Origin: Cynocephalus volans
Taxonomy: Eukaryota > Chordata > Mammalia > Dermoptera > Cynocephalidae
NCBI RefSeq assembly: GCF_027409185.1
Contig: NC_084462.1
Span: 21,923,577 to 21,987,576, forward strand
DNA: 64,000 nucleotides
Direction: 5' to 3'
The notes beneath the pieces were generated by a model. The model saw only the letters and a list, made by a program, of their open reading frames with translations. It was not told the origin of the DNA and did no database searches. Each line of letters begins with the position of its first letter. The stretch's first letter is position 1. Positions 49,066 through 58,034 of the stretch are shown here, piece after piece. Position numbers and translations under genes: made by a program.

Positions 49066-49840
49066 TGAGAGACTGATTTGGGCAATCACTCAGTCAGGAG
49101 AGACCCTCCCAAGGAACAACGAGCCCACGGCTTCGGATGCAATTAGCAAGAGGTTTTATTGAACACACGGGTACCCGGGCGGCTCAGTCTCTCGGTAGAC
49201 TGGCGCGCCGAGTAGAGTTTTTGAGCTTGTTTTATAGCAAAAAGCGCGGGTACAGAAGCGAGAAGCAAGGTAATTGGTCGGTTTAAACAAGGCCAGGGAA
49301 AAAGCGCGGGTCGTGTGGGAGTTCTTGAAACAGCCGAAGGGCGCCCTGGAAACTGCTCTGGGAGGCCTAGTGCAAGCTGATAACAGAAGCTGAAAGAAGC
49401 GAGTTAATCACTTAGGGACAGCAAAAACTTTCACAGGGCGGTTTCTTTCTTAGGTTGTCTAGATACATCCAGATACAGCTCTTGGTGTTATCAGTCAGAG
49501 ACAGCATAGGTGGGAAACAGCAAAGGCAGGCAGAACTTAAAATTTTTCTAAGTACAGCACAATTTTTAACCTTCAATTTTCACCACAGGTGTTGGGGGGC
49601 TTTTAAACAAGAACACTTTTCAAACAGTAAAAATGGCATAAGCTAAGAACACTTTTCAAACAGTAAAAATGGCATAAGCTAAGAACACTTTTCAAACAGT
49701 AAAAATGGCATAAGCTAAGAACACTTTTCAAACAGTAAAAATGGCATAAGCTAAATCAGTCTACCTCGCACACCCCTTTATGAATTTCTTGGCCTTGCGG
49801 AATGGCGTTACTGCGGCTAGCTTGGAAAACACTTCTTTCA
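49066..49840 (-). repeat. Gammaretrovirus 3' LTR
   Basis: Same length and apparently same sequence as the 5' LTR (constant offset 8194). TATAAA is at 49231-49236, AATAAA at 49155-49160 and the U3 repeats at 49609-49752. Confidence 0.96.
49609..49752 (-). promoter_or_regulatory. U3 enhancer array, 4 x 36 bp (3' LTR)
   Basis: Four tandem perfect 36-bp units (each containing AACACTTTTCAAACAGTAAA on the plus strand) near the 5' end of U3, where gammaretroviral enhancers lie. Repeat number often sets tissue tropism in this group. Confidence 0.9.
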
Positions 49841-49856
49841 TTCCCCCATTTCTCTT
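49841..49856 (-). other. 3' polypurine tract
   Basis: In sense GAGAAATGGGGGAA, directly abutting the TGAAAG start of the 3' LTR. It primes plus-strand DNA synthesis in this family. Confidence 0.9.
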
Positions 49857-49883
49857 GTGGGAAGCTCTAATCTTAGAGCGAAT

Positions 49884-51893
49884 TTAGAGGTTGTCCTCGT
49901 TGTCTAGGGTCTGATATTTTTGTCTAAGGACCAGAATTTTTACTGCACTTACCCTGTCATTGATGAACTGGACTAACCTATTGATGATGCAGGGCCCGAG
50001 GGTGAACAACAGAAGGAGGAGCAATAGGGGCCCGGCGATGGTTGATAGGAGGGTAGTGAACCAAGGGGAGTTATTGAACCACCCTTCATACCAGTTTTGG
50101 TTTTTCTGGCGCTCCAACTGTCTTTTATCTAGTCTCTCTTTGAGTTTTCTCATGGAGTCTCGCACCACACCTGAGTGGTCTACATAAAAACAGCACTCTT
50201 CTTTTAGGGCCGCGCAGAGGCCTCCTTCTCTTAGAAACAGTAGGTCAAGGCCTCTTCTATTTTGGAGTACTACCTCCGATAGGGAAGTCAGCGAGTCCTC
50301 CAGCTTGCTGATTGAGTCCTGGAGGACCCGGAGGTCAGTATCCATGGCGGTCTGGAGGCTGGCTAGGCCTTGTTGGAGGTCTATGGGCCCTTTAACTAGG
50401 GCGGATGCGCCAGTACCTATACCTGCTGCGACCCCCAACCCCAGAAGAACAGCTAGGGTAAGTGAGACAGGCTCTCTTTTAACCCTGGGGTGAGGATCGT
50501 CATAGGCCTGCAACAAAGTTTCTTCAGAATGGTAATAGATGCGAGGGACCAGCTGGATCAGGATACAGAAATCTTTAGACTGATTAAAAACTGAGGTGGA
50601 GAGGCAGGGGGTGAGGCCGGTGCTGCAGGCCCACCAGCTATGGTTGGTGGGGAGCAGGTACTGATGTTCCGTGGAGGAGTTGATGGGTAGGGTCTGATTG
50701 CAAAGATGCTGATGGGTAGAGGGCACCTTTCCTATGCACGACCCGTGTCCTGAGACCTCAGTGAGGGTAAGCTTTCCTTGGCTCTCCCAGCGGCACTGGG
50801 TATAGTTGGAGGTATAAGTGAAGGCCCCTCCTAAGGAGGCAACTCCTTCATAATAAGGGGGACCCAAGGCCAAACAGAGCCAGCAAGACTTTGTGGCGTC
50901 TGGGTCGGTAGCATTTAAGGCTAGGAAGGCCCCCCTCACAAGGCCAAAGAGTCTGTCGCCCGTGGTGGGAGACAGGGTGTTCAGGACAACACTTCCCTCC
51001 AGTACCGTGGGGACTTGGCTAGGAGCCGCCGAGGGTTGAGAGATGGGCGGCGCTTCCCTCGTTGGGGAAGGGGGGTTTTTGTTAGGGGGTCCTTGTTTCG
51101 CAAGGACGGAGTTGGGGCCCACTGTCTCAGCTGGCTTGCTGGTGATCTCTAACCGAATGGTCAACTGTACGCCTGGATATCCAGACACATAGAATCCCAA
51201 TCCCCAGGTTTTTCCTATTATCCACTCTTTGGATTGCCGTCCTTGTTCTGTGAAACTTATTTTAAGGGGGTTACACCAGCCGGTTTTTTCACAGGTTGCC
51301 AGTAGGGCACCCCATGATCGCTCTGTGTCATTCCATTTTACAGTTATGAGGTCCCAGGAGGACGTAGGTTGCCAATAAACAGTCCCCGTGGTTTCACAAC
51401 CCCATTCTTTACAATACAGGGATTTTAGCCCTCCACACCTTCTAGCTTCTGAAAGGGACCGGCCATCCCGGGGACACACGTAGAAGGTGGAACTTGCCAT
51501 TCTGGTCCTAGCCTTAGGGTAGCTGCATCCTATGGCTCCCCAGGTGATCTGTCTATAAGCATTCTCATAGTTTGAGTCAGGGGGTCTGACTCTCTTAGAG
51601 GTTGATACATCGGTTTCTGGGATATCCCAGGACTCAAGACCGGCCGCCAGAGCACATACATCAGGTGTAAGAATGGGCCACCAAGTCCAAGGGGGCTGGA
51701 CTTTCTCTGTCTTCCAGACAACGTTCCCAGTTTGGGACAGTACCTGCCAGGTGAGGGTCACAGGCTGGTGAGGGTTTTCACTCCAACTCGTTCTGCCGCC
51801 GCCGAAAACGCAGCTTAAGAGGATGATCAGTCTTTTCCAGCTCCCAAGACTCATCTGGTGCCGAGGGTGGTGCAGGCTTGAGGTGAGAAGCAT
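49884..51893 (-). CDS. env: Env: surface and transmembrane glycoprotein, open
   Basis: 669 codons, no stop. A second Met at residue 14 precedes the hydrophobic signal peptide (RLIILLSCVF) and may be the true start. The surface subunit has a receptor-binding region, a proline-rich hinge (about 265-295) and the CWLC disulfide-isomerase motif (337-340). The RVKR furin site is at 470-473. The transmembrane subunit has a fusion peptide, the CX6CC motif (560-568, pairing with CWLC), a membrane anchor (about 615-637) and a cytoplasmic tail with a YQTL-type motif. N-glycosylation sequons are present. Everything expected of a gammaretroviral Env with covalent SU-TM linkage is visible. The nearest family memory is GaLV/KoRV/FeLV-B type; receptor use is not inferable from this sequence alone. 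Confidence 0.96.
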   Translation of the reverse strand: MLLTSSLHHPRHQMSLGSWKRLIILLSCVFGGGRTSWSENPHQPVTLTWQVLSQTGNVVWKTEKVQPPWTWWPILTPDVCALAAGLESWDIPETDVSTSKRVRPPDSNYENAYRQITWGAIGCSYPKARTRMASSTFYVCPRDGRSLSEARRCGGLKSLYCKEWGCETTGTVYWQPTSSWDLITVKWNDTERSWGALLATCEKTGWCNPLKISFTEQGRQSKEWIIGKTWGLGFYVSGYPGVQLTIRLEITSKPAETVGPNSVLAKQGPPNKNPPSPTREAPPISQPSAAPSQVPTVLEGSVVLNTLSPTTGDRLFGLVRGAFLALNATDPDATKSCWLCLALGPPYYEGVASLGGAFTYTSNYTQCRWESQGKLTLTEVSGHGSCIGKVPSTHQHLCNQTLPINSSTEHQYLLPTNHSWWACSTGLTPCLSTSVFNQSKDFCILIQLVPRIYYHSEETLLQAYDDPHPRVKREPVSLTLAVLLGLGVAAGIGTGASALVKGPIDLQQGLASLQTAMDTDLRVLQDSISKLEDSLTSLSEVVLQNRRGLDLLFLREGGLCAALKEECCFYVDHSGVVRDSMRKLKERLDKRQLERQKNQNWYEGWFNNSPWFTTLLSTIAGPLLLLLLLFTLGPCIINRLVQFINDRVSAVKILVLRQKYQTLDNEDNL

Positions 51894-57203: not shown

Positions 57204-57239
57204 CCGTTGGTGGGTCGGTGGTCCCTGGGTGGGGGTCTG

Positions 57240-57257
57240 ATCCCGGACGAGCCCCCA
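57240..57257 (-). other. Primer-binding site, tRNA-Pro
   Basis: In sense TGGGGGCTCGTCCGGGAT, an exact 18-nt complement to the 3' end of tRNA-Pro, two bases after the 5' LTR. This is the usual primer of murine leukemia-type viruses. Confidence 0.97.
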
Positions 57258-57259
57258 AA

Positions 57260-58034
57260 TGAGAGACTGATTTGGGCAATCACTCAGTCAGGAGAGACCC
57301 TCCCAAGGAACAACGAGCCCACGGCTTCGGATGCAATTAGCAAGAGGTTTTATTGAACACACGGGTACCCGGGCGGCTCAGTCTCTCGGTAGACTGGCGC
57401 GCCGAGTAGAGTTTTTGAGCTTGTTTTATAGCAAAAAGCGCGGGTACAGAAGCGAGAAGCAAGGTAATTGGTCGGTTTAAACAAGGCCAGGGAAAAAGCG
57501 CGGGTCGTGTGGGAGTTCTTGAAACAGCCGAAGGGCGCCCTGGAAACTGCTCTGGGAGGCCTAGTGCAAGCTGATAACAGAAGCTGAAAGAAGCGAGTTA
57601 ATCACTTAGGGACAGCAAAAACTTTCACAGGGCGGTTTCTTTCTTAGGTTGTCTAGATACATCCAGATACAGCTCTTGGTGTTATCAGTCAGAGACAGCA
57701 TAGGTGGGAAACAGCAAAGGCAGGCAGAACTTAAAATTTTTCTAAGTACAGCACAATTTTTAACCTTCAATTTTCACCACAGGTGTTGGGGGGCTTTTAA
57801 ACAAGAACACTTTTCAAACAGTAAAAATGGCATAAGCTAAGAACACTTTTCAAACAGTAAAAATGGCATAAGCTAAGAACACTTTTCAAACAGTAAAAAT
57901 GGCATAAGCTAAGAACACTTTTCAAACAGTAAAAATGGCATAAGCTAAATCAGTCTACCTCGCACACCCCTTTATGAATTTCTTGGCCTTGCGGAATGGC
58001 GTTACTGCGGCTAGCTTGGAAAACACTTCTTTCA
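57260..58034 (-). repeat. Gammaretrovirus 5' LTR
   Basis: In sense it begins TGAAAGAAGTG and ends GTCTCTCA. U3 holds four 36-bp direct repeats (57803-57946), a CCAAT box near 57466 and TATAAA at 57425-57430. R probably starts near the GCGCGCC at about 57400, and AATAAA is at 57349-57354. All promoter elements are intact, so it could still drive transcription. Confidence 0.96.
57803..57946 (-). promoter_or_regulatory. U3 enhancer array, 4 x 36 bp (5' LTR)
   Basis: Same four-unit array as in the 3' LTR. Both LTRs having four units shows no slippage since integration. Confidence 0.9.

What the first reader, a model, noticed from the sequence alone, without database searches (positions are those of the whole stretch)
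49066..58034. Apparently very young gammaretrovirus in a colugo-like genome
The two 775-bp LTRs read as identical, the 4-bp GTGT duplication is intact, and pol and env are fully open. Identical LTRs mean little or no time for mutation since integration. The proteins resemble the GaLV/KoRV/FeLV branch, whose Asian reservoir hosts are only partly known. I cannot say whether this provirus has been described. If confirmed it is a candidate link between circulating and germline GaLV-like viruses in Southeast Asia.
Basis: partly seen in the sequence, partly recalled or inferred. Interest (0 to 1): 0.92.

Follow-up and report, generated by a model that had tools for sequence, protein, structure and literature searches.

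The report
Young GALV-like provirus in flying lemur
This is a recent insertion of a gibbon-ape-leukemia-virus-like retrovirus in the genome of the Philippine flying lemur, one of a family of such copies that was already described in 2025.

Summary
A complete gammaretroviral provirus lies on the minus strand at 49066-58034: two 775-bp LTRs without a difference, an intact GTGT duplication, and open pro-pol and env. One thing was not stated: gag is split between two frames, so this copy as assembled cannot make full Gag or Gag-Pol; none of 39 other scored places in the genome has the same sequence in that stretch. The host is the Philippine flying lemur: an Env protein named as Cynocephalus volans is found at 100% in the window's own genome. 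At least 66 places there encode this Env at 98-100%, 63 without an internal stop. Env falls inside the GALV/KoRV/bat-virus group, away from FeLV. The kind is in print: PMC11928578 (2025) reports 86, 341 and 5 proviruses of groups A, B and C in C. volans, with near-zero LTR ages. This copy has the three group-A motifs. Zero LTR differences bounds the age below about 0.9 million years (95%), not at zero. Verdict: real and well read, but a member of a described family; whether this insertion is still unfixed is open.

The parts
49062..49065 (.). target-site duplication GTGT, low side
58035..58038 (.). target-site duplication GTGT, high side
57260..58034 (-). 5' LTR; TATAAA 57430-57425, AATAAA 57354-57349, 36-bp repeat array 57803-57948
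49066..49840 (-). 3' LTR, identical to the 5' LTR; repeat array 49609-49754
57240..57257 (-). primer binding site, 18 bases; proline-tRNA type by recall
57196..57201 (-). candidate splice donor GGTAAG (role inferred)
55481..56815 (-). gag frame with MA, PRPPIY, PPPY and CA; does not reach NC in frame
55273..55602 (-). frame that holds the NC zinc knuckle and ends at the readthrough TAG; not the frame of MA-CA
55214..55275 (-). gag/pol readthrough element (Rfam GP_knot1, 69.5 bits, gathering 67.7)
   Evidence: simple folding not better than shuffles
51778..55272 (-). pro-pol: protease, RT, RNase H, integrase; open
49884..51893 (-). env, 669 aa, CETTG motif, RVKR before TM; open
49841..49847 (-). 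end of the polypurine tract next to the 3' LTR

Best explanation
A recent germline insertion of a GALV-like gammaretrovirus in Cynocephalus volans, one copy of the published group CynVolERV-A. Shown: integrase-type insertion with identical LTRs, open pro-pol and env, gag split between two frames as assembled, many near-identical Env copies in the same genome, Env inside the GALV/KoRV group. Inferred: the LTR can drive transcription and Env can be made from a spliced message, but this copy cannot make full Gag or Gag-Pol by itself, so any further copying of it would need proteins from sister copies. Inferred: that it is one of the 86 group-A proviruses counted in the paper.
For: LTR identity, duplication and domains. 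The Env P0006, named Cynocephalus volans by its source, lies at 100% at two places in the window's genome, which has 2,814,384,482 bases in 130 contigs. Five places match P0006 at 99-100%; the paper counts five CynVolERV-C. At least 66 places encode the window Env at 98-100%; the paper counts 86 CynVolERV-A. PRPPIY, PPPY and CETTG are present, as the paper gives for all, 84 and 75 of 86 group-A proviruses. Env tree 100/99 for the group with GALV, KoRV and bat viruses.
Against: The paper's table of loci could not be opened, so this locus was not looked up. One CynVolERV-B2 copy also has PRPPIY, so motifs alone do not prove the subgroup. The Pol rows nearest to the window bear no GALV or KoRV name. 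No search with Gag MA-CA against the protein database was made.
Confidence: 0.94

Rival explanations
1. The gag break is an assembly or sequencing error and this copy is fully open.
For: The stretch is A-rich with homopolymer runs; pol and env are intact; 73 of 86 published group-A proviruses have full-length ORFs; the sequence of this stretch is not found in any of 39 other scored places.
Against: No reads were available. A private frameshift is equally expected from a real mutation or a reverse-transcription slip in such a run (general knowledge).
Confidence: 0.35
2. The insertion is older than it looks and the LTRs were made alike by gene conversion.
For: The paper names LTR gene conversion as a bias of the method.
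Against: Env copies across the genome are 98-100% identical and 63 of 66 have no stop, which fits youth of the whole group; duplication intact.
Confidence: 0.06
3. The window is from another mammal, such as Galeopterus, and the provirus is undescribed.
For: None found beyond the hidden name of the window's own record.
Against: The C. volans Env P0006 is in this genome at 100% twice; the paper found no KoRV/GALV-like sequences in Galeopterus, although PMC11341202 lists one clade-adjacent, non-clustering sequence there (passages).
Confidence: 0.02

Closest known systems
CynVolERV-A (PMC11928578, Sci Rep 2025)
   Same: host, near-zero LTR divergence, PRPPIY/PPPY/CETTG motifs, many full-length copies, Env in the GALV group
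   Different: this copy has a split gag as assembled; the paper's sequences and table of loci were not compared directly
CynVolERV-B and -C
   Same: same host and the same wider clade
   Different: PQPPVL in gag instead of PRPPIY in all but one (paper); the five P0006-type Env places, possibly group C, are about 76% identical to the window Env
GALV (source-named rows P0001-P0004) and KoRV (P0008, P0011)
   Same: layout, Env in one supported group, TM 86-91% identical
   Different: Env 76-79% (GALV) and 69-73% (KoRV) identical
FeLV and MLV
   Same: gammaretroviral layout and domains
   Different: Env of the FeLV-named rows 44-48% identical and in a separate supported group with MLV

Membership tests
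Gammaretrovirus provirus | LTR pair, short target duplication, primer site, gag-pro-pol-env in order, readthrough stop between gag and pol | tested here: met
Gammaretrovirus provirus | one continuous gag frame from MA to NC | tested here: not met
   MA-CA and NC-pol are in different frames; a defect of the copy, not of kinship
GALV/KoRV clade | Env groups with GALV, KoRV and bat viruses to the exclusion of FeLV, MLV and PERV | tested here: met
   12-row group, 100/99; order inside unresolved
GALV/KoRV clade | Pol groups with GALV and KoRV | tested here: inconclusive
   nearest Pol rows are unnamed or named only Gammaretrovirus sp.
CynVolERV-A | host is Cynocephalus volans | tested here: met
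   source-named C. volans Env found at 100% in the window's genome
CynVolERV-A | PRPPIY, PPPY and CETTG motifs | tested here: met
CynVolERV-A | many near-identical copies with open frames | tested here: met
   at least 66 Env places at 98-100%, 63 without a stop; 66 of 4409 candidates scored
CynVolERV-A | listed among the 86 published loci, or sequence grouping with them | not testable with these tools

The most novel reading that the evidence does not exclude
This insertion is still unfixed in the Philippine flying lemur, so the empty site occurs in living animals, and it belongs to a wave of germline entry by a GALV-like virus that has not ended.
Probability: 0.35. Interest if true: 0.55.

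Novelty: already known. Interest (0 to 1): 0.2.

Why it matters
[quoted passage not shown] That case has been made in print for this family (PMC11928578). The present locus adds one copy with identical LTRs and open pol and env but a split gag, useful as a genotyping marker and not as a new kind of thing.

Tried and rejected
FeLV kinship: rejected by the Env tree. A gag relative in viral contigs: 16 stretches matched a pattern, none was a relative by tblastn. Plain RNA folding of the readthrough element: z -0.86, 40 of 200 shuffles as good, so it adds nothing to the Rfam match. NCBIfam on four pieces: six models for pol, all below their cut-offs, none for the other three. Host by gene: BHLHA15 was found, but apart from the window's own record the best row over the full length is 86% (donkey), and no colugo is named in the 120 listed of 1143 rows, so it does not place the host. 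Host by SINEs: 11 of 26 repeat intervals were taken, 10 fitted one dimeric tRNA-derived family; that colugos carry such SINEs is recalled and was not compared. Solved structures: Pol, Env and Gag matched 356, 19 and 9 distinct sequences, which adds no closer relative than MLV-type chains (names partly recalled).

Subsets used: Env tree, 28 of the 120 listed of 204 hits. Pol tree, 23 of the 120 listed of 777 hits, quick method, 9 of 21 inner branches open. Domain identity table, 26 chosen rows. Genome searches scored only part of their candidates: 40 of 753, 68 of 4300, 66 of 4409, 40 of 537.

Full report
What is there. The stretch 49066-58034 is a provirus read on the minus strand. The LTRs (49066-49840 and 57260-58034) are the same in 775 of 775 bases, including a 36-bp unit repeated 4.1 times without a mismatch. 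GTGT stands once on each side and the ends are TG...CA. Just inside the 5' LTR is an 18-base primer site at 57257-57240, of the proline-tRNA type by recall. A purine tract adjoins the 3' LTR. TATAAA and AATAAA lie in the LTR at 57430-57425 and 57354-57349.

Genes. Env (51893-49884, 669 aa) covers the TLV_coat profile from 2 to 560 of 560. Pro-pol (55272-51778) is open and holds protease, RT, RNase H, integrase core and the MLV-type integrase C-terminus. Gag has an ATG at 56815 and MA and p30 domains, but that frame stops at 55481, while the NC zinc knuckle lies in another frame (55602-55273), the one that leads over the readthrough TAG into pol. In the host genome none of the 39 other scored places has the window's sequence in that stretch (40 of 537 candidates scored), so the break is private to this copy or an error; the stretch is A-rich and no reads were available. 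The readthrough element is found by Rfam slightly above its gathering score (69.5 against 67.7); simple folding does not set it apart from shuffles.

Host and copy number. The window lies at contig 3, 21923577-21987576, of a genome of 2,814,384,482 bases in 130 contigs. A 300-base flank beside the provirus is found in full only there; the other 39 scored rows match only its last third. The Env protein P0006 is named by its source as a Cynocephalus volans protein; it is found at 100% at two places of the window's genome, and at 99% at three more. That makes C. volans the host. The window's own Env is found over its full length at 66 scored places at 98-100% identity, 63 of them without an internal stop; the count is a lower bound, since 66 of 4409 candidates were scored. 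The P0006-type places number five among those scored, the number the paper gives for CynVolERV-C; that they are group C is inference.

Age. With the rate used by the published study (0.0022 per base and million years; PMC11928578), one LTR difference would mean 0.29 Myr, and zero differences give a 95% upper bound of 0.88 Myr. That is young, but identity alone does not say that the insertion is unfixed or that a virus still circulates. Gene conversion between LTRs can lower the count, as the paper says.

Relatives. A search with Env gave 204 proteins among 7994 scored, 120 listed; the best named rows are GALV (79, 79, 76 and 76%), the C. volans protein (74%), KoRV (73 and 69%), Hervey pteropid (70%) and Macroglossus (69%) viruses, besides two unnamed rows at 79 and 75%. 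In a tree of 29 rows the window Env falls in a 12-row group with all of these (100/99), with the order of its main branches unresolved; FeLV stands with MLV in another group. TM is 84-92% identical across rows P0001-P0011, the receptor-binding part 61-78%. Pol is 94% identical to an unnamed cluster of 22 members, and in the tree closest to a row named Gammaretrovirus sp. (97% over 595 columns), in a group of four with SH-aLRT 100; none of those rows bears a GALV or KoRV name, so Pol alone does not show the clade.

Already in print. A search for colugo and gammaretrovirus listed 6 papers, one of them PMC11928578 (Tsangaras, Mayer, Greenwood 2025), of which I read the outline and parts 1-4 of 6: main text, methods and the start of the references. 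It describes 86 CynVolERV-A, 341 CynVolERV-B and 5 CynVolERV-C proviruses in C. volans, mean LTR ages of about 0.00 to 0.10 Myr, full-length ORFs in 73 of 86 of group A, and transcripts in heart. Group A has PRPPIY in all, PPPY in 84 and CETTG in 75 of 86; groups B and C have PQPPVL instead, except one B2. The window has PRPPIY, PPPY and CETTG. The name CynVolERV occurs in one paper of the library. PMC11341202 was seen in listings and passages only, PMC4198772 in listings and passages. The supplement with the list of loci could not be opened. I therefore file this copy as a member of a described family.

Surroundings. BHLHA15 is encoded at 5203-5781 on the plus strand. On the minus strand three-frame scans of 13001-43000 found propeller repeats (Hyd_WA) with best stretches at about 13.1, 28.5 and 31.4 kb, which suggests TECPR1, a neighbour of BHLHA15 in human by recall. 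Whether the provirus lies in an intron was not settled.

How it most likely works. Inference: transcription from the LTR, a spliced env message and Env from it are possible; Gag without NC and without a way into Pol would not give particles alone, but sister copies could supply the proteins. The paper reports transcripts for all four subgroups and could not assign them to single copies.

Noticed in passing
56816-57094, minus strand: 93 codons are open in frame upstream of the gag ATG, without ATG but with several CTG, ending in a hydrophobic stretch. It resembles the leader of glycosylated Gag, which a paper abstract says KoRV can potentially encode (PMC4528783, search listing).
   Followed up: partly
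P0006: A Cynocephalus volans protein named solute carrier family 23 member 2 isoform X1 is a GALV-like Env, 74% identical to this one; probably a misnamed gene model.
   Followed up: partly
48877-49056: A repeat nine bases short of the 3' LTR side matches 58623-58715 (92%) and 47667-47771 (87%) in the window but not the main SINE family.
   Followed up: partly
2011-62626, ten places: Ten dimeric tRNA-derived SINE copies of one family.
   Followed up: partly
32545-32792: GC-rich tandem array, period 80, 2.9 copies.
   Followed up: no
G000, Env places: Ten of the 63 Env places at 75-77% to P0006 have an open frame of 662-663 instead of 678 residues, possibly a second Env length class.
   Followed up: no
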